53,049 nt of DNA from an uncultured Armatimonadota bacterium. GTDB taxonomy: Bacteria > Armatimonadota > Fimbriimonadia > Fimbriimonadales > Fimbriimonadaceae. Positions 11,992 through 20,478 of the stretch are shown here, piece by piece (the first letter of the stretch is position 1; every line of letters starts with the position of its first letter). The notes under the pieces were generated by a model that did no database searches, was not told where the DNA came from, and was given only the letters and a program-made list of their open reading frames with translations. The translations under genes and the position numbers were made by a program. The stretch is taken from contig CAIUHP010000014.1 in assembly GCA_903899015.1 (NCBI GenBank), forward strand, positions 1 through 53,049, written 5' to 3'.

Positions 11992-12567
11992 TTAAAGGTT
12001 GCTTAGGTCTGTTCTCGTCAGTTTCACACTCGAAAGAAACTGACGAAACTGATCCATATCCTTCTCAACATCAGAAACGTGGGTGTCTCGCCCCGAAAGT
12101 GAGATCAGAATAGTTGTGTTTCCCCTCACGGCGAATGCAGTTATGACCGTCAGCAGCTTTTGAGACCGCCGAACTAGGCGGAACTTGGCACCGTCCGCGG
12201 TAACTTCTCCCATCTTTTCGGCAGCCCAGCCGGGCATATTTCTACGTGTCATTTCAATCAAGCGGTCAGCCAATTGCTCGGTGCCTAGTTCGGGCGTTGG
12301 ATTTGCTTCCGCTACCATTTGATTGATCCCACCATTAATGAGCACCCTGGTGTCGGCCTGTCGGTATAGAAAAAGAGTCTGTGGGCCGTGAGGAATCTCT
12401 TTCCATCCCTTAGGAGGTTGCGGAAAGCCTAATACGTAGTTCGCACTGAGTTCATGCGAATTACGCTCCGCAATGGCCTTGTACTCGAATCCGACTAGCA
12501 TACAGATGACAAGTGCAAAGGAAAGTATTCCATATCGCATCGGACGAACTGGACGGGACGGTTCCAT
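11992..12567 (-). CDS. Putative secreted or membrane-anchored protein of unknown family
   Basis: 191 residues. One hydrophobic segment at residues 11-26 (RYGILSFALVICMLVGF) looks like an uncleaved anchor or signal peptide. The rest is a soluble alpha/beta domain beginning GFPQPPKGWKEIPHGPQTLFLYR, reminiscent of small periplasmic stress or lipoprotein-like domains, but no family is recognised. It converges on atpG, with 5 bp between the stops. Its promoter must share the 92 bp that also form the left flank of the CRISPR array. Confidence 0.7.
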   Translation of the reverse strand: MEPSRPVRPMRYGILSFALVICMLVGFEYKAIAERNSHELSANYVLGFPQPPKGWKEIPHGPQTLFLYRQADTRVLINGGINQMVAEANPTPELGTEQLADRLIEMTRRNMPGWAAEKMGEVTADGAKFRLVRRSQKLLTVITAFAVRGNTTILISLSGRDTHVSDVEKDMDQFRQFLSSVKLTRTDLSNL

Positions 12568-12659: not shown

Positions 12660-14213
12660 GTTGGGGCAATCGGCCATTTTCTAATCCGGTAAACTTCGAT
12701 CGGCCAGAACCCAAAGTCGCTACCAGTTGGGGCAATCGGCCATTTTCTAATCCGGTAAACTCCAGCTGCACTAACATCCTGGCACGGGAAGGTTGGGGCA
12801 ATCGGCCATTTTCTAATCCGGTAAACTGCCGCCCTGGCCCGATCGTGCGAGTTCTAAGTTGGGGCAATCGGCCATTTTCTAATCCGGTAAACTCGATATA
12901 TGCGGCTTATACGCTAATTGCGTGTTAGGGCAATCGGCCATTTTCTAATCCGGTAAACTTTGTCCAGCCACCGTCCCAGTCAGCAGTCCGTTGGGGCAAT
13001 CGGCCATTTTCTAATCCGGTAAACTGTGTCCGAAATGCTTATTAGCCAATCCCAGGTTGGGGCAATCGGCCATTTTCTAATCCGGTAAACTCAAGAACCG
13101 AGAGAGGTAATGAAGGTGAATGTTGGGGCAATCGGCCATTTTCTAATCCGGTAAACTCCTGGCTTCCCAGCTTGCCTGCTTCGATCGGTTGGGGCAATCG
13201 GCCATTTTCTAATCCGGTAAACTCGGGGATGGAATTATCATCATTATCATCATGTTGGGGCAATCGGCCATTTTCTAATCCGGTAAACTTGAAACGGTTA
13301 AGTCCCTCGAAGTTCGTTTGTTGGGGCAATCGGCCATTTTCTAATCCGGTAAACTTCAAGTGGTAGATTTCCTCCTAACCGTCTGGTTGGGGCAATCGGC
13401 CATTTTCTAATCCGGTAAACTATTAGACTCCCGGCCATTGCCGAAGAGAACGTTGGGGCAATCGGCCATTTTCTAATCCGGTAAACTCGGTTGTCTAAGA
13501 TTAGCCGCCCGAATCCAGTTGGGGCAATCGGCCATTTTCTAATCCGGTAAACTCTCATGGAGCATGGCGCCTCATGGAGCATGGTTGGGGCAATCGGCCA
13601 TTTTCTAATCCGGTAAACTCCGACACGGGCAAATGTCGAGCCCATACATGTTGGGGCAATCGGCCATTTTCTAATCCGGTAAACTTAGGGAAAAGAGATA
13701 CATCGACTGTCATGTGTTGGGGCAATCGGCCATTTTCTAATCCGGTAAACTAGGGTCACACCTGCCAAGCGCTCAAGGGTCGTTGGGGCAATCGGCCATT
13801 TTCTAATCCGGTAAACTCTTAACCGTAACTAAGGATAGTATAACCGTGTTGGGGCAATCGGCCATTTTCTAATCCGGTAAACTTCAAACCGGTTTTGAGT
13901 AGGTTAAGAACCTGTTGGGGCAATCGGCCATTTTCTAATCCGGTAAACTTCCGAAGTGTTCGGCTGCGAGATCCCGTTGGTTGGGGCAATCGGCCATTTT
14001 CTAATCCGGTAAACTAAGTTTGCGTGGGGCCGTCGTAAGCTTGATGTTGGGGCAATCGGCCATTTTCTAATCCGGTAAACTTCGATATCGGGATCGTGAA
14101 CGCCTCTTTCCGTTGGGGCAATCGGCCATTTTCTAATCCGGTAAACTTACTTCATCCCTGACCAGGCTGCTCGGTGGGTTGGGGCAATCGGCCATTTTCT
14201 AATCCGGTAAACT
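12660..14213 (+). CRISPR. Type II-C CRISPR array, 24 repeats and 23 spacers
   Basis: The 36-bp repeat begins GTTGGGGCAA and ends CCGGTAAACT, and recurs at an exact 66-bp period from 12660 to 14178, so all 23 spacers are 30 bp. The only repeat variant I see is the fifth (12924-12959), which has A instead of G at position 4. The terminal repeats are both intact. Repeat bases 1-28 are complementary to the anti-repeat at 18801-18828 on the plus strand, which fixes the crRNA strand as plus, that is, towards the cas genes. The last six bases, TAAACT, resemble a -10 box, as in Neisseria and Campylobacter II-C repeats where every repeat carries its own promoter. Spacers are unrelated to each other and none matches this window by eye. 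Confidence 0.98.
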
Positions 14214-14266: not shown

Positions 14267-14659
14267 TTACCAAAAACTTAGCTGATTAGGAGCTTCCTCA
14301 GGTTCACTTCGCGAATTTCCAGAAAAAATCTTCATTCTTTGGAATTGGAGCTCCGTAAGCGTAATGACTCTCACTTGACCGTCGGCGGGGACCTTGGCTT
14401 CAATGCGGTTCGAGTGTATTTCGGCATTCTCACGATTCGGACAGAATCTTGCGTACACGCTGAATTGCATCATTATGAAACCGTCATTGAGTAGAAAGTC
14501 CCGGAATTTTCGATAACAACTTCGCATTTCCTTTGTTTCAACGGGGAGGTCAAACATGGCTACCACCCACATATTACGAACCCCGCCATAGCTCATTCGG
14601 TAGGCCTTGCGATCTACTTTGAAACCTTGATTGGAGTTGACGTTTACAGGGTCGGACAT
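14267..14659 (-). CDS. cas2: CRISPR-associated endonuclease Cas2
   Basis: Structural partner of Cas1 in spacer integration. 130 residues with the ferredoxin-like fold start MWVVAMFDLPVETKEMRSCYRKFRDFLL, where the Asp of FDLP is the conserved metal residue, followed by GFIMMQFSVYARFC. An N-terminal extension of about 28 residues precedes the usual start; Met22 or Met30 could be the true start. Its first 16 bp overlap the end of cas1, so the two are translationally linked. The stop is 54 bp from the last CRISPR repeat. Confidence 0.95.
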   Translation of the reverse strand: MSDPVNVNSNQGFKVDRKAYRMSYGGVRNMWVVAMFDLPVETKEMRSCYRKFRDFLLNDGFIMMQFSVYARFCPNRENAEIHSNRIEAKVPADGQVRVITLTELQFQRMKIFSGNSRSEPEEAPNQLSFW

Positions 14660-15531
14660 TGGACATCGACTCCTCCATCTACTAGCGCGTCTCGCACTTG
14701 AGCGCAGTAGCGCTGCAAAGCAGTATCAAGCGGAAATCGGTCACCGTCCCACCCGACTTCGGCGGCAAGGCAGTGTAGTAAGTATCGTTTGATCGTTGGC
14801 GTTAGTTCTGCCTCTTCCTCGGGAAACGCTTGCAGACTGGATATTACGTTTTGGTCAACCATTGGGCGGAGTGGTTCGATGAGGTCATCGGCCAAGGCGA
14901 ATGGATTGAATCGGTTGTGGTGCCAAATACCTACGCTCGGGTCCAGACCACTTAAGACCACGGCCCGAACTACCGCCGCCCGAAGAACGGCGTAGCCATA
15001 GTTCAGCCGAGAATTGATGCCAGCCGCGTCGGCGTCTCGAGTGAAATCAGCCCCGAATAGCGCCGGAAAATAGCGCGCGGCCGCAACGCCTTCCATATTT
15101 GTTGTGTCTCCACTCTTGATCTTTACTAGAACGGCTCGCACGGCCCGATCGTCCAGGTTATTGTCTCGAAGAACTTGAGCCTGTGCTTGGACTTTAGCCG
15201 TGATAACCGTTCGCCAAATCCGCTTTTTGGTGGGTAGCTTTGCTTCAAGCTGTTTGCGGTGGGTATAAGCCATCAGGTGATTCCCGACTGTCGGCACCAA
15301 GATGCCGGTCGGTAGATGCTTGGGGCCGCAGAATACGATTGCTATACCCTGATCTGCGCACTCTGAGAGCAAAGCACTCGTCCAACAAGCCTCGGGAGTG
15401 TCGACCACTATCAACGCGAGGTCTTCTAGCGGTGCGGTATTCACGACCTGCCTATCCCGCTCTTGCACGAGTTGGCGGTTCTTAATGCTTAAGAATCCTG
15501 GTGTACTAATAGCGACAGATCGCTTTACCAC
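14644..15531 (-). CDS. cas1: CRISPR-associated integrase Cas1 (type II)
   Basis: Integrates new spacers with Cas2. 295 residues, type II size. The N-terminus RSVAISTPGFLSIKNRQLV is the Cas1 beta-strand domain. The helical catalytic domain carries the Glu in AARYFPALFG, the His in GIWHHNRFNPFALADDLIEPLRP, and the acidic residues that follow. The start is GTG directly behind an in-frame TAG, so no earlier start is possible. The GTG lies inside an inverted repeat (15522-15547). It follows cas9 after 34 bp. Confidence 0.96.
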   Translation of the reverse strand: MVKRSVAISTPGFLSIKNRQLVQERDRQVVNTAPLEDLALIVVDTPEACWTSALLSECADQGIAIVFCGPKHLPTGILVPTVGNHLMAYTHRKQLEAKLPTKKRIWRTVITAKVQAQAQVLRDNNLDDRAVRAVLVKIKSGDTTNMEGVAAARYFPALFGADFTRDADAAGINSRLNYGYAVLRAAVVRAVVLSGLDPSVGIWHHNRFNPFALADDLIEPLRPMVDQNVISSLQAFPEEEAELTPTIKRYLLHCLAAEVGWDGDRFPLDTALQRYCAQVRDALVDGGVDVQCPTL

Positions 15532-15565: not shown

Positions 15566-18500
15566 CTAGTGAAATTGCGGGTTTTCATTTGGATTGACCT
15601 CGTGGACCACTTCACCAAAAGCGTTGAGTCGGACTTTCCTTGTGATCTGCAAAACTCCTTTCAAACTTTGAAATCTCAAGATAGGCTCGTGACCATTCCA
15701 TTTCTGGTTTCTAAGGCCTGCATCCATTGTAGCGACTGAGAGTAGCTGGAACACAGCCTCAAAACTGGAGCCTGCAGACAATGCCGACACACGATAAAAT
15801 ACACCTGGTTTATCCTCAAACTCCACGACTTCACCCTTTTCAAGAGTTACCCACTTGGCATAGCCTCGGCGAAGCAAGTCTCCACTTGCTTGGTAAACTG
15901 GTTCTTTCTTGCGGAATCGCCGGGCAACTTCGATCATAGTCGTAATTTCGGCATGGAAGTCGTATTCACCTTTCTTATCTATCTCCAAACTGCGATAGAT
16001 AGTCAGGTGATGGTTGTTCCCTAGTGGATAAACCTGTGCCGCCTTTCCGTCACGGTCGTACCGAATCAGCTTGCCATTTGCAGTTATTGCAGACTTCGGC
16101 AACCCTACTTTCAGATGATCGGGCAGGTTCTTTAGGTCCTCTCTCTGTGGCATCTGCTTATGTAATTCGCCGGTCACCTTCTTGATGGTATGGCTTGTAA
16201 CAACAATATCATCTAAATGAGCTTTCATGAACTTGCGAAGCTCCCTGATGGGGCACGTCTGGTTCCAATCAACTTTATACTCACCGGGCGCCAAATCCCG
16301 ATGCGCCCTGCTAATCTGCTGAAAGGTGCTGATATCCGTCAAAGCAACCACCAAAGCGTCAATGGCATGGTGCCGGTGGTCGGATCGATTCTTCGTCCGG
16401 GAGTCCTGACGGAACTCCTCGTCTACTCCATCCTTCTTGTTTTTCTTGATATGCTTCGCGTAACCAATCCAGTCAGGGAACAACTTTTCTAAACCCCAAT
16501 GGTAGCGTAGCAATGCCGTCGCCTTACCCGAGCTGATCTCCACCTTGACACCAAGCTGAGTGAGAATCGAGGTGAGTTCTCTAGCGATGTAGCCGGTCGC
16601 CGCAAGCTGACTTGCCAACCACTCTTCATCTGGCTCCTCCGTCTTGCAGAGCCAGCTTTGCTTCCCTCGGCTCATGTTCTTACACTGTTTGACACGAGTT
16701 TGAAACCTCGCAAAATCGTCTCCCAGGAAGTCCCAGAGCAACTGGTTCCCCTTCGTTGCGTTGGTACTCTTTCGGCACAAAACGAGATTGCGGTTGTCGT
16801 TTACATATAGGCGTGACCGAGGATAAGCGTGGTCAATTTCAAGCTCGTCCAGATGGGCATACGAAGTCTTCTCATTTTCGTACAGAAGGGTATAGTCGCA
16901 TTCCTCCAATAGCCGTGCTTTCTTTACATTGATGTCTGTCGGCTCAATCCCTAAACCTTTGAGTCTCGTGATGGTCTTTTCCCGGCTCTGACGGTGCTTT
17001 TCTATTTCGTCTTCGATTTTCTTCTTTTTATCCGCCGATAGTGTTAAGTCTCGAGGAAGCTCGACTCGAATCTTCTCTGGAATCCCGTAGCGGTAAATCA
17101 ACTGATTAAGCACCCAAACTGCTCGTCGTATTCCACGTTCAACAATCGGGTTTCGGAGTCCGAGGTCCTTTGGAAGTTTGATGAGGCTGGACTTAATCTC
17201 CACATCGGCATCCGGGTTCAAATCCTGCTCCTTTAATCGCTTTGCGCGCTCTTCACGAATCGGAACAAATAGCTTTTGCTTCGCAATGGCCTCGTATTCG
17301 CCCGTCTGAATCATCCGCTCTGAAATCTTGTTAAGAAACTTAGTGCTGTATTCGCCGTAGCCGGCTGGAAACGGAGCAAGCGCAATCTTCGCGCAAGTGC
17401 GATCCTCCATGATTCCGAGCCTAACCAGCCCGTTATAAGCATCGTTTGGCCACGGCGCACTATTAATGATGTCCTGAACCTTTGCTTTATCCTCCGCTGA
17501 CCATTCGGAGTAAGCATCGTTCGTGAGTTCTCTTAACAGCCTCCGCGTCTGATGTCCAAACACCTTGCCCCGCTTCGCGACGCCCGATTTTTTCGTTACC
17601 GTCATTTCGCCCTCAGGAAGACCAACTCGTTTGAGGATCTCCTCAATCGTGAGATCAATTCCGTCCATAAGGTCTGGCAAAAGGTTTGCCAGTTGAGCTT
17701 CTGTAAACGTATTCTGAACTTCGAAGACAGGCCCATTTGCCTTCGACTTCTTTGGCCTTGTACCAACAACGAAGTTATTGAACAGGTCTTGAAGAATGCG
17801 GCTACGTTGGAACGCATCAGAAGTCTTGGGCGCGCAGTAGCTGCCTTCATATGCTGGGCAGGTTTTTCGAAGGCTTTCGGTGTCTTGGAGAGGCAATTGA
17901 CCAAAGATGATGCGTTCTAGTTTCACCCTTAGTTCCTGAGTCAAAATCCCAGGATGATAATGGGATTGCTTGTCGAAAATACGATGGAATTCGGCTTTGA
18001 TTAGCGCTCGATCGGATCGGTAAGGGAGCTTTTTGGTATCCGGCTCTGGAATTCGCCCGGTCTCATTCTTTGCCGGTTTGGAGAAGCGTTTGGTGTAGTG
18101 ACGTGTATACACACCATTTTCAGCCACTTTGGTCATAAGCTCGCCATAAGTTCTGGCTTCACCATCCCTTATGGCCTTGTAAGACGCCTTGATTCCTCCC
18201 AGCACGATGCCGAGTTTTTCACCATCTTCTTCATCTTGCTCGTCTTCTTCGTCCGCATCGGCATACTGCGATTCCTTGCGGTACGCCGCTGGAATGTCGT
18301 TTGCCATGAGATCACGCGTGCTTAAATAGCCACGACAACGATTCAGGTGGCAGATCGCTTTTGCAAATTCCTCCAAAGTAAGTGCTTCATCCAAAGCTCG
18401 GGTTCGCAAAACCAACGGTTGAACATTTCTACCCTGATGGGTGTGCCTGGTCAGGACCGCATCACGTTCGGCTTCGTCTGTTGGCAGTGCTTTGATGTTG

Positions 18501-18784
18501 GCGAAGATGGAATAGAGATCATCTCGTCGCTGAATTCGACGACGTAGAGTTCTTCTCCCAAGGCGATGCCTCCTTCTCTCCTGGTTGTTGAGGGTCCGCT
18601 TACCATTGTCGTCTTGACCCGCTTCTTCAAAAACATGACTACCCGTGAGGAAAATCCCAAATTTGGTGGGGTCTTCGAGTTGCTCCCAGCCTTGAGTCTG
18701 AACCGCACTGTAGCCAACGGAGTTACTTCCTAGGTCTAACCCAATGATATAAGGTGATAAGGACTTGACATTTGGTTTACCCAT
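15566..18784 (-). CDS. cas9: RNA-guided endonuclease Cas9, type II-C
   Basis: Cuts DNA matching the crRNA spacer, using the crRNA-tracrRNA duplex. 1072 residues, close to the compact II-C size. RuvC-I is IIGLDLGSNSVGYSAV with catalytic D17. The arginine-rich bridge helix NQERRRHRLGRRTLRRRIQRR follows near 68-88. RuvC-II is KIRVELPRDL. The HNH nuclease has LEIDHAYPRSRLYVNDNRNLVLC with the catalytic His. RuvC-III is DHRHHAIDALVVAL. An acidic segment (YADADEEDEQDEEDGEK, near residue 175) lies in the recognition lobe. All nuclease residues appear intact. There is no Shine-Dalgarno site and a TATAAT ends five bases before the ATG, so the mRNA is probably leaderless. No cas4 or csn2 is present. Confidence 0.97.
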   Translation of the reverse strand: MGKPNVKSLSPYIIGLDLGSNSVGYSAVQTQGWEQLEDPTKFGIFLTGSHVFEEAGQDDNGKRTLNNQERRRHRLGRRTLRRRIQRRDDLYSIFANIKALPTDEAERDAVLTRHTHQGRNVQPLVLRTRALDEALTLEEFAKAICHLNRCRGYLSTRDLMANDIPAAYRKESQYADADEEDEQDEEDGEKLGIVLGGIKASYKAIRDGEARTYGELMTKVAENGVYTRHYTKRFSKPAKNETGRIPEPDTKKLPYRSDRALIKAEFHRIFDKQSHYHPGILTQELRVKLERIIFGQLPLQDTESLRKTCPAYEGSYCAPKTSDAFQRSRILQDLFNNFVVGTRPKKSKANGPVFEVQNTFTEAQLANLLPDLMDGIDLTIEEILKRVGLPEGEMTVTKKSGVAKRGKVFGHQTRRLLRELTNDAYSEWSAEDKAKVQDIINSAPWPNDAYNGLVRLGIMEDRTCAKIALAPFPAGYGEYSTKFLNKISERMIQTGEYEAIAKQKLFVPIREERAKRLKEQDLNPDADVEIKSSLIKLPKDLGLRNPIVERGIRRAVWVLNQLIYRYGIPEKIRVELPRDLTLSADKKKKIEDEIEKHRQSREKTITRLKGLGIEPTDINVKKARLLEECDYTLLYENEKTSYAHLDELEIDHAYPRSRLYVNDNRNLVLCRKSTNATKGNQLLWDFLGDDFARFQTRVKQCKNMSRGKQSWLCKTEEPDEEWLASQLAATGYIARELTSILTQLGVKVEISSGKATALLRYHWGLEKLFPDWIGYAKHIKKNKKDGVDEEFRQDSRTKNRSDHRHHAIDALVVALTDISTFQQISRAHRDLAPGEYKVDWNQTCPIRELRKFMKAHLDDIVVTSHTIKKVTGELHKQMPQREDLKNLPDHLKVGLPKSAITANGKLIRYDRDGKAAQVYPLGNNHHLTIYRSLEIDKKGEYDFHAEITTMIEVARRFRKKEPVYQASGDLLRRGYAKWVTLEKGEVVEFEDKPGVFYRVSALSAGSSFEAVFQLLSVATMDAGLRNQKWNGHEPILRFQSLKGVLQITRKVRLNAFGEVVHEVNPNENPQFH

Positions 18785-18794
18785 GCAACATTAT
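18765..18794 (+). promoter_or_regulatory. Predicted tracrRNA promoter
   Basis: TTGACA (18765-18770, a perfect -35 inside the first codons of cas9), an 18-bp spacer, and CATTAT (18789-18794, four of six matches to -10). A start about seven bases on falls at 18801, exactly the first base of the anti-repeat. This agreement between predicted start and RNA boundary is the main support. Confidence 0.65.
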
Positions 18795-18818
18795 ATCCAT
18801 GGATTAGAAAATGGTCGA
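18790..18818 (-). promoter_or_regulatory. Predicted cas9 promoter, overlapping the tracrRNA gene
   Basis: On the minus strand, TATAAT (18795-18790, all six bases matching) lies 17 bp from TCGACC (four of six matches to -35, about 18813-18818). The -10 ends five bases before the cas9 ATG, so transcription would begin at or next to the start codon. Its -35 and spacer are the anti-repeat itself, and its -10 shares base pairs with the -10 of the divergent tracrRNA promoter. Confidence 0.6.
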
Positions 18819-18928
18819 CTGCTCCAACAAAAGCAGTTGAACAGCGGGTTTCCCCGCTTACTGTATAGTGGTCGGTAAAACGGTTGCGCTGAGTTGGTTC
18901 GTTCCTTGTGAACGGGCCATTTTAGTTT
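18801..18928 (+). ncRNA. tracrRNA
   Basis: The anti-repeat 18801-18828 matches the complement of CRISPR repeat bases 1-28 with three differences: two give G-U pairs and one an A-C mismatch. After it come AAAAGCAGTTGAAC, a hairpin AGCGGG-TTTC-CCCGCT (18843-18858), a linker, and a terminator of nine pairs (18896-18904 with 18910-18918) with loop CTTGT, ending in ATTTTAGTTT. The length of about 125 nt and the order anti-repeat, nexus-like stem, terminal hairpin are those of II-C tracrRNAs. It is transcribed divergently from cas9. Confidence 0.9.
18896..18928 (+). terminator. tracrRNA terminator hairpin
   Basis: GGTTCGTTC, loop CTTGT, GAACGGGCC (including two G-U pairs) followed by ATTTTAGTTT. 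Beyond it, 18930-19131 shows no gene or clear element. Confidence 0.75.
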
Positions 18929-19131
18929 ATGCTGAACCTATTTTCACTTTGATTAGCCTCATGCACCTGAGGACAAGAGGAAGCACGCCGTTTCAACCTA
19001 GTCCGTTCCCTTTCCTCACAATTAGCTCGACGTGCAGTGAAGCTCGTCAGCCTCACTGAATGCACTCATGGAGAGGGGCACGGCCATCAAATCTTTACCG
19101 CGTTCAGGGCGCAGAATGGTTGATGAACCGG

Positions 19132-19680
19132 CTAAGCGAGTTTCTCAAGTACGAGGAGTTGATCCAACTCTTCGTCAGTTGCTAGGTTGAACTGAGCGTA
19201 GATTTTTTTCCGCTCTTCGGTGTGTTTTGCCCGCAATTCTCGTCGAAGCTTGCCTTCTAAGAATCGGATTTTATCGTCGCGCGTCTCACAGAGCAAGCGT
19301 GGAACAACCGCTGACTTCCCTTCCTTCATTGCTACCATCGTGACCCTAGCGGTGTTAGTGTGCCTTCTTGTACCAAGCATCACATTCTCTGCGAAAATCT
19401 CGATGGTCACCTCGACGCTTGTGCGTCCGACAAACGAGACGAGTCCGACGAAAGTGACGAGTTCGCCAACTTCAATGGGCTCGTGGAAATCAACTCGATC
19501 AAAACTCGCAGTTACGCAGATCGTCCCCGCGAAACGGGAGGCCGTCGCATAAGCACAAAGGTCGATCTTAGAAAGGATCGCGCCTCCGAAGACCTTCCCC
19601 AGGAAGTTTGCGTCCTGGGGCTGCATGACTTCAGACATCTCTGTCCGAGTAGACGATACGCTCTTTGCGGAGCTATTCAA
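19132..19680 (-). CDS. Acyl-CoA thioesterase, hotdog fold
   Basis: Hydrolyses acyl-CoA thioesters. The single hotdog domain opens with EVMQPQDANFLGKVFGGAILSKIDL, matching the YciA/BACH-type motif with the active Asp near the end of that stretch, and continues with VTASFDRVDFHEPIEVGELV. A charged C-terminal tail of about 50 residues (KLRRELRAKHTEERKK) is extra. The reading frame opens with TTG six bases after the tpiA stop. The ATG at 19638 (Met15) fits the family better. It is probably co-transcribed with tpiA. Confidence 0.85.
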   Translation of the reverse strand: MNSSAKSVSSTRTEMSEVMQPQDANFLGKVFGGAILSKIDLCAYATASRFAGTICVTASFDRVDFHEPIEVGELVTFVGLVSFVGRTSVEVTIEIFAENVMLGTRRHTNTARVTMVAMKEGKSAVVPRLLCETRDDKIRFLEGKLRRELRAKHTEERKKIYAQFNLATDEELDQLLVLEKLA

Positions 19681-19686
19681 GAATGC

Positions 19687-20478
19687 TCACGCACTCCGTA
19701 CGACTTCACTGAACTCTTCTGGATCGAGGCTTGCGCCGCCCACCAGCCCGCCGTCAATGTCAGGCATGGTGAAGAGTTCTTTAGCGTTGGACGCCTTGAC
19801 GCTTCCGCCATATAAAATTCGGATGGAATCTGCTGCATCCGCGTCTAAGATCTCGCGAAGTTGGGCTCGAATGAATCCACAAACTCGGCTAGCTTCTGCA
19901 GAATCGCAAGTCTTACCCGTTCCAATCGCCCATACCGGTTCGTAAGCGACAACTCCGTTATAGAACTCGGCCCCTTCAATTCCTTCAAATGCACCCTTCA
20001 ACTGGGCAGCAATGACTGCGTCCGTTTGCTCAGCGTTGCGCTCGTCTAAAGTTTCGCCTACGCAGAGGATCGGGTGAATCGATTGGTATAGGAGAGCCTT
20101 AATTTTAAGGTTAACCGTTTCGTCTGTTTCGCTGAAGTAAGGGATCGTTGAAGCAGTCACTTCAAGTTTGCCAAAACGGCCTCTAGTTTCGCTGTGACCG
20201 ACGATGCAGAATGCGCACCCGGCGTCTGCCAACATAGAAGCGCTTACATTGCCAGTAAATGCGCCAGCACCCATCCAAAAGACATCTTGAGCACCGACTC
20301 GGAAATGGCTTTGGTGAAGGAGCCTCGTCACGGTCTCAATGGTGAGATACGGTGGGCAAATAGCAACATCGACTTCGGTTTTAGGGTCGACGAGTAGAAC
20401 AAGCGACTCAATTGCTGCAGTTGCCTGCGTGCGAGTCATATTCATCTTCCAGTTGCCGACAACAAGCTTTTTTCGCAT
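19687..20478 (-). CDS. tpiA: Triosephosphate isomerase
   Basis: Glycolytic interconversion of dihydroxyacetone phosphate and glyceraldehyde 3-phosphate. GNWKMN carries the catalytic Lys11, CIVGHSETR carries His95, VAYEPVWAIGTGK carries Glu180, and the phosphate-binding ILYGGSV and GLVGGASL are present. The GHSERR motif is altered to GHSETR, and about 14 extra residues (GRFGKLEVTASTIP) are inserted between it and YFSETDETV, lengthening one loop beside the active site. Length 263 is slightly above normal for that reason. Confidence 0.95.
   Translation of the reverse strand: MRKKLVVGNWKMNMTRTQATAAIESLVLLVDPKTEVDVAICPPYLTIETVTRLLHQSHFRVGAQDVFWMGAGAFTGNVSASMLADAGCAFCIVGHSETRGRFGKLEVTASTIPYFSETDETVNLKIKALLYQSIHPILCVGETLDERNAEQTDAVIAAQLKGAFEGIEGAEFYNGVVAYEPVWAIGTGKTCDSAEASRVCGFIRAQLREILDADAADSIRILYGGSVKASNAKELFTMPDIDGGLVGGASLDPEEFSEVVRSA

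What the first reader, a model, noticed from the sequence alone, without database searches (positions are those of the whole stretch)
18765..18818. tracrRNA and cas9 promoters collide on the same base pairs, with a leaderless cas9 mRNA
On the plus strand TTGACA (18765-18770) and CATTAT (18789-18794) place a start at 18801, the first base of the anti-repeat. On the minus strand TATAAT (18795-18790) and TCGACC 17 bp upstream place a start at the cas9 ATG (18784). The two -10 boxes share base pairs 18790-18794, so RNA polymerase can serve only one at a time. The cas9 -35 and spacer are the anti-repeat itself, so the sequence that defines guide pairing also defines cas9 expression. This would couple the ratio of guide scaffold to nuclease, and a guide carrying anti-repeat-like sequence could silence cas9. 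Autoregulation through tracrRNA is known in Streptococcus pyogenes by a different layout; the overlap here is read directly from the sequence.
Basis: partly seen in the sequence, partly recalled or inferred. Interest (0 to 1): 0.8.

Follow-up and report, generated by a model that had tools for sequence, protein, structure and literature searches.

The report
Shared tracrRNA–cas9 divergent promoter, leaderless cas9
In an uncultured Armatimonadota bacterium, the guide-scaffold RNA and the Cas9 nuclease of a type II CRISPR system appear to be read in opposite directions from one two-way promoter, with the Cas9 message starting at its own start codon; relatives keep this layout across very divergent Cas9 proteins, but nobody has yet mapped the RNAs.

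Summary
A sigma70-type promoter for the tracrRNA (TTGACA-18-CATTAT, + strand) and one for cas9 (TATAAT ending 5 nt before the only usable ATG, - strand) share 18790-18794. This is the known 18-bp "bidirectional promoter" geometry, in which the -7T and -11A of the two strands pair with each other. It is not chance. In 26 related armatimonad loci, the best promoter on the tracrRNA strand puts its start within 2 nt of the anti-repeat's first base in 22 (shuffles: mean 3.3, maximum 9). Six loci forming one well-supported Cas9 clade, down to about 30% protein identity, have a -10 box 5-8 nt before the cas9 start (exactly 6 nt in four) and no Shine-Dalgarno sequence. The host genome shows the genome-wide signature of leaderless genes. 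The further inferences are weaker. The cas9 -35 inside the anti-repeat is not kept at usable spacing in the closest relative. Published E. coli bidirectional promoters do not compete at basal strength. No spacer matches the promoter. I call it a new variant of known kinds: a conserved bidirectional tracrRNA/leaderless-cas9 promoter. Shown: sequence, geometry, conservation. Inferred: transcription starts and any coupling.

The parts
18765..18770 (+). -35 hexamer TTGACA of the tracrRNA promoter, inside cas9 codons 5-7 (N-V-K)
   Evidence: TTGACT at the equivalent codons in G023 (L017, 16-nt spacer); TTGACA-17-TATxxT in several more distant loci (L016, L028, L068, L072).
18789..18794 (+). -10 hexamer CATTAT of the tracrRNA promoter (18-nt spacer), predicted start 18801
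   Evidence: Best tracr-strand promoter start lies within 2 nt of the anti-repeat in 22/26 loci; in this window it is 4 nt inside the alignment-defined boundary.
18790..18795 (-). -10 hexamer TATAAT of the cas9 promoter, sharing 18790-18794 with the tracrRNA -10
   Evidence: TATTAT/TATGAT/TATAAT 6-8 nt before the start codon in L017, L021, L022, L023, L025.
18813..18818 (-). Weak -35-like TCGACC (4/6) within the anti-repeat; probably not a conserved promoter element
   Evidence: 17 nt from TATAAT here, but 20 nt from TATTAT in L017, where the hexamer at 17 nt does not resemble a -35 (sequence).
18801..18828 (+). tracrRNA anti-repeat, pairs with repeat positions 1-28
   Evidence: 28-29 nt inverted match, 89-90%, to nearly all array repeats; local alignment to the repeat.
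18801..18928 (+). tracrRNA (predicted): anti-repeat, hairpins, terminator hairpin (stem-loop 18895-18919 plus T-rich tail)
   Evidence: MFE -45.1 kcal/mol, z -3.27 against shuffles; terminator-like site; tracr of G023 printed alongside, with a paired change in the terminator stem (GTTC/GAAC to GCTC/GAGC).
15566..18784 (-). cas9 (1072 aa); predicted leaderless mRNA beginning at or within 1 nt of the ATG
   Evidence: (TIGR01865 E 3e-118, HNH_4, RuvC_III); no Shine-Dalgarno.
14644..15531 (-). cas1 (type II), downstream of cas9, same strand
   Evidence: TIGR03639 E 3.6e-80; Cas1_II.
14267..14659 (-). cas2, overlapping the end of cas1
   Evidence: TIGR01573; Cas2_II.
12660..14213 (+). CRISPR array, 24 repeats of 36 nt (GTTGGGGCAATCGGCCATTTTCTAATCCGGTAAACT), 66-nt period, crRNA sense on +

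Best explanation
The 54-bp interval is one bidirectional sigma70-type promoter. RNA polymerase bound in one orientation uses TTGACA/CATTAT and starts the tracrRNA at about 18801, the first base of the anti-repeat. Bound in the other orientation it uses TATAAT (with little or no -35) and starts a leaderless cas9-cas1-cas2 mRNA at about 18784. The -10 boxes are offset by one base, so -11A and -7T of the two directions are the same base pairs. The two RNAs therefore diverge without overlapping, so the cas9 mRNA carries no antisense copy of the anti-repeat. Polymerases exclude each other sterically at any instant, but a measurable trade-off is expected only if one direction is strong. Shown: sequence elements, geometry, conservation, absence of a ribosome-binding site. 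Inferred: the actual start sites, translation of the leaderless mRNA, and any regulatory consequence.
For: Exact elements; only such double site in 565 kb of the same genome. Best tracr-strand promoter start within 2 nt of the anti-repeat in 22/26 loci, against a mean of 3.3 (max 9) in 300 shuffles; mean score 10.3 against 4.4 +- 0.4. The leaderless clade (window, L017, L021, L022, L023, L025; support 99/96) has -10 to start gaps of 5, 6, 6, 6, 6, 8 nt and no SD, while its sister group (L016, L018-L020) has SD leaders. The base giving the cas9 -10 its first T is present in 6/6 of the clade against 6/20 elsewhere (p = 0.004). Own-genome TANNNT peaks sharply 6 nt before starts (18 against about 4 per position) and only 63 of 321 genes show an SD-like motif. 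The geometry matches published bidirectional promoters (PMC10268837).
Against: No RNA data exist for this organism. A -10 box is partly symmetric, so a tracr -10 automatically makes a weak opposite -10. The E. coli-based matrix may not fit Armatimonadota. The cas9-side gap is 5 nt here, one short of the usual. The tracr -35 lies in codons and is weak or missing in L021, L022, L023 and L025. Anti-repeat edges in a few loci and the start codons in leadered loci were set by eye, and loci are not fully independent.
Confidence: 0.75

Rival explanations
1. Distal cas9 promoter. [quoted passage not shown] TATAAT at 18790-18795 is only the mirror image of the tracrRNA -10.
For: One search lists GTGAAA-17-TAAAAT at 18947-18919 (-), 9/12. 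Group B Streptococcus has a distal cas promoter P2cas at the 3' end of tracrRNA (PMC12216829). Upstream genes lie on the same strand.
Against: The TAAAAT is the complement of the tracrRNA terminator tail, and no matching -35 is present in L017 (sequence). It would leave unexplained the precise -10-to-start geometry and lack of SD across a divergent clade and the 6/6 -12T. A long leader would lack an SD and be fully antisense to tracrRNA.
Confidence: 0.13
2. Functional switch. The shared -10 forces polymerase to choose, so tracrRNA and Cas9 levels are inversely coupled and the overlap is selected for that control.
For: Overlap conserved; steric exclusion and repression of the divergent RNA occur when one direction is strongly active (PMC12825309).
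Against: The same study finds no competition at basal activity for all five promoters tested. Where cas9 has a leader (e.g. L066, L019), the cas9-side -10 is poor or displaced, so strict overlap is not universal. No regulator site is known.
Confidence: 0.2
3. Repeat-derived promoter. The anti-repeat descends from a CRISPR repeat that carried its own -10 at its 3' end, and the cas9 promoter is that repeat promoter, kept in place.
For: In 23 of 24 armatimonad arrays the repeat's last six bases fit TANNNT; type II-C repeats carry promoters (PMC12080349). L020 and L071 keep TACAAT at the repeat position on the cas9 strand.
Against: In the leaderless clade the cas9 -10 sits 3 (window) to about 8-10 nt beyond the repeat position, so it is not the same element.
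Confidence: 0.12
4. Chance: two AT-rich hexamers that happen to overlap in a short intergenic region.
For: Single promoter-like sites are only slightly above chance in the region.
Against:: conservation and shuffle controls.
Confidence: 0.03

Closest known systems
Bidirectional bacterial promoters (starts about 18 bp apart; PMC10268837, PMC12825309)
   Same: Opposite-strand -10 boxes offset by one base, with reciprocal -11A/-7T pairs; predicted starts 17-18 bp apart.
   Different: Here the pair is tracrRNA and cas9, the cas9 side is leaderless, and the layout is kept across a phylum's Cas9 loci; start sites are predicted, not mapped.
Type II-C CRISPR-Cas with divergent tracrRNA upstream of cas9 (e.g. 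Bordetella pseudohinzii, PMC4624362)
   Same: tracrRNA divergent upstream of cas9, with cas9-cas1-cas2 and the array downstream.
   Different: That paper predicts a tracrRNA promoter; the passages I read do not describe shared -10 base pairs or a leaderless cas9.
Streptococcus pyogenes tracr-L autoregulation of Pcas (PMC11417352)
   Same: Links tracrRNA to cas9 expression in the region upstream of cas9.
   Different: tracr-L acts as a natural single guide that takes Cas9 to Pcas; no long tracr form or guide to the promoter was found here.
Leaderless (TA-led) bacterial genes (PMC3160421; Deinococcus, PMC12340547)
   Same: TANNNT about 11-12 bp upstream of the start codon, no Shine-Dalgarno.
   Different: The -10 is shared with a divergent non-coding RNA promoter.

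Membership tests
[quoted passage not shown]
   D17, D651-H652, N675, H805/D809 conserved with G023.
[quoted passage not shown]
   Only cas9, cas1 and cas2 between the array and the thioesterase gene.
[quoted passage not shown]
Bidirectional promoter (18-bp class) | -10 elements on opposite strands sharing reciprocal -11A/-7T | tested here: met
   Coordinates; the only double site at this score in 565 kb.
Bidirectional promoter (18-bp class) | Observed transcription starts 7-25 bp apart on opposite strands | not testable with these tools
   Predicted 17-18 bp apart; no RNA data.
Leaderless gene | TANNNT about 10-12 bp upstream of the start codon and no SD | tested here: met
   genome-wide peak.
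Leaderless gene | mRNA 5' end at the start codon | not testable with these tools
   Needs 5'-end mapping.
tracr-L type autoregulation | Long tracrRNA or guide with sequence matching the cas promoter | tested here: inconclusive
   Only one + strand promoter-like site in 18000-20000; no spacer with a match of 9 nt or more; shorter or imperfect matches not excluded.

The most novel reading that the evidence does not exclude
The shared -10 is a selected, mutually exclusive switch that fixes the tracrRNA to Cas9 ratio without any protein regulator, conserved across the Cas9 loci of Armatimonadota, with leaderless translation making cas9 output depend only on promoter choice.
Probability: 0.17. Interest if true: 0.7.

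Novelty: new variant of a known kind. Interest (0 to 1): 0.5.

Why it matters
Cas9 is costly to a cell and needs a matched amount of tracrRNA. A single two-way promoter kept over deep divergence would be the simplest possible way to keep the two in step. It also offers a clean test of whether polymerase competition at bidirectional promoters is ever used for control, because synonymous changes in cas9 codons can alter one direction alone. It also suggests annotating tracrRNA 5' ends and cas9 starts together.

Tried and rejected
Chance: rejected by genome, shuffle and comparative controls. cas9 -35 in the anti-repeat: spacing not kept in L017. Spacer-guided silencing: no match of 9 nt or more. 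Close relatives in viral contigs: none; in genome contigs only G023. Repeat-derived cas9 promoter: position mismatch in the leaderless clade, so kept only as a rival. Upstream promoter 18947-18919: overlaps the terminator tail and its -35 is not conserved. A literature search for tracrRNA with overlapping or bidirectional promoters found nothing relevant; most subscription papers are not in that library.

Full report
WHAT IS THERE. The window is contig C14 of a 4.94-Mb genome. Its closest Cas9 relative in named records (68-69% identity) lies in CAIYMO010000026.1, "uncultured Armatimonadetes bacterium", which is the same-genus genome G023. The locus is a compact type II-C-like system: cas9 (15566-18784, -), cas1 and cas2 on the same strand, then a 24-repeat array whose crRNA sense is the opposite strand. 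A 28-nt anti-repeat (18801-18828, +) heads a predicted tracrRNA that folds much better than shuffles (z -3.27) and ends in a terminator-like hairpin. The closest relative preserves the RNA, with a paired change in the terminator stem.

THE OBSERVATION. The + strand -10 (18789-18794) and - strand -10 (18795-18790) are offset by one base, so the -11A of each direction pairs with the -7T of the other. That is the arrangement described for the commonest bidirectional promoters, with starts 18 bp apart (PMC10268837). A double site of this strength occurs nowhere else in 565,589 bases of the same genome that I could read.

CONSERVATION, tracrRNA SIDE. Type II Cas9 occurs in 32 of 291 armatimonad genomes searched. 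In 26 of the loci I fetched, an anti-repeat lies directly upstream of cas9 on the opposite strand. Scoring a sigma70-type promoter on the tracrRNA strand, the best site puts its start within 2 nt of the first anti-repeat base in 22 of 26. Shuffling the flanking DNA gives 3.3 on average and never more than 9, and mean scores are 10.3 against 4.4 +- 0.4. Examples are L016 TTGACA-17-TATACT, L028 TTGACA-17-TATATT, L068 TTGACA-17-TATTAT and L072 TTGACA-17-TATAGT. This is strong evidence that tracrRNA starts at the anti-repeat edge throughout this group, and that its promoter lies in the cas9 leader or first codons.

CONSERVATION, cas9 SIDE. In the window, L017, L021, L022, L023 and L025 a good -10 lies 5, 6, 6, 6, 6 and 8 nt before the cas9 start codon, with no Shine-Dalgarno sequence. 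In the window, L017, L023 and L025 the start codon is the only in-frame candidate, so the geometry was not chosen by me. These six form one supported clade (99/96) whose members are as little as about 30% identical in Cas9. Its sister group (L016, L018, L019, L020) has longer leaders with Shine-Dalgarno motifs. The base that supplies the first T of the cas9 -10 is present in 6/6 of the clade but 6/20 of the others (Fisher p 0.004), which argues that the cas9 -10 is more than the mirror image of the tracr -10. The sample is small and related.

LEADERLESS EXPRESSION IS NORMAL HERE. Over 321 gene starts in this genome, TANNNT peaks sharply at 6 nt before the start codon (18 against about 4 per position, Poisson p about 7e-7), and only 63 starts have an SD-like motif. 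This is the published signature of leaderless genes (PMC3160421; PMC12340547).

WHAT DOES NOT HOLD UP. The proposed cas9 -35 (TCGACC) is 4/6. The same anti-repeat hexamer in G023 is 20 nt from its -10, so its conservation is explained by anti-repeat pairing. The claim that guide pairing and cas9 expression are written in one sequence is therefore only loosely true: the -10 is shared, the -35 probably is not. Steric exclusion is certain in principle, but all five E. coli bidirectional promoters tested were too weak at basal level to interfere, and interference appeared when one side was activated (PMC12825309). Guide-mediated silencing has no support: no spacer shares 9 nt with 18651-18990, and no long tracrRNA form is evident as in S. 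pyogenes (PMC11417352).

HOW IT MOST LIKELY WORKS. One bidirectional promoter starts tracrRNA and a leaderless cas9-cas1-cas2 mRNA from the same melted region, about 17-18 bp apart and without overlap of the two RNAs. The starts and any coupling are inferred. The main rival is a distal cas9 promoter at the 3' end of tracrRNA, for which Group B Streptococcus offers a precedent (PMC12216829).

RELATION TO KNOWN SYSTEMS. Divergent tracrRNA upstream of cas9 in II-C is known (PMC4624362); bidirectional promoters and leaderless genes are known. I found no description of their combination, within an open-access library only. I rate it a new variant of known kinds.

Noticed in passing
window 12660-14213; arrays in L017, L020-L026, L028, L058, L060-L068, L071-L073: The last six bases of the crRNA-sense repeat fit a -10 box (TANNNT: TACACT, TACAAT, TATAAT, TAAACT, TATACT) in 23 of 24 armatimonad type II arrays examined, which suggests per-repeat promoters as reported for II-C.
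   Followed up: partly
L058, L060, L061: A distinct Cas9 group in the phylum has its anti-repeat in cas9-sense orientation upstream of cas9, with repeats ending GCTATAAT; L059 groups with it in the tree, but no array was found there.
   Followed up: partly
L071 (G020): A species of the same genus carries a Cas9 from a different, distant clade, suggesting separate acquisition of type II systems within the genus.
   Followed up: no
L068, oriented coordinates about 12486-12520 and 13374-13404: Two further repeat-like copies lie outside the main array of this locus.
   Followed up: no
L069, cas9 upstream region: cas9 there has a TACAGT exactly 6 nt before its ATG, well apart from the tracrRNA -10: possibly a leaderless cas9 promoter that does not share base pairs, a useful natural comparison.
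   Followed up: no
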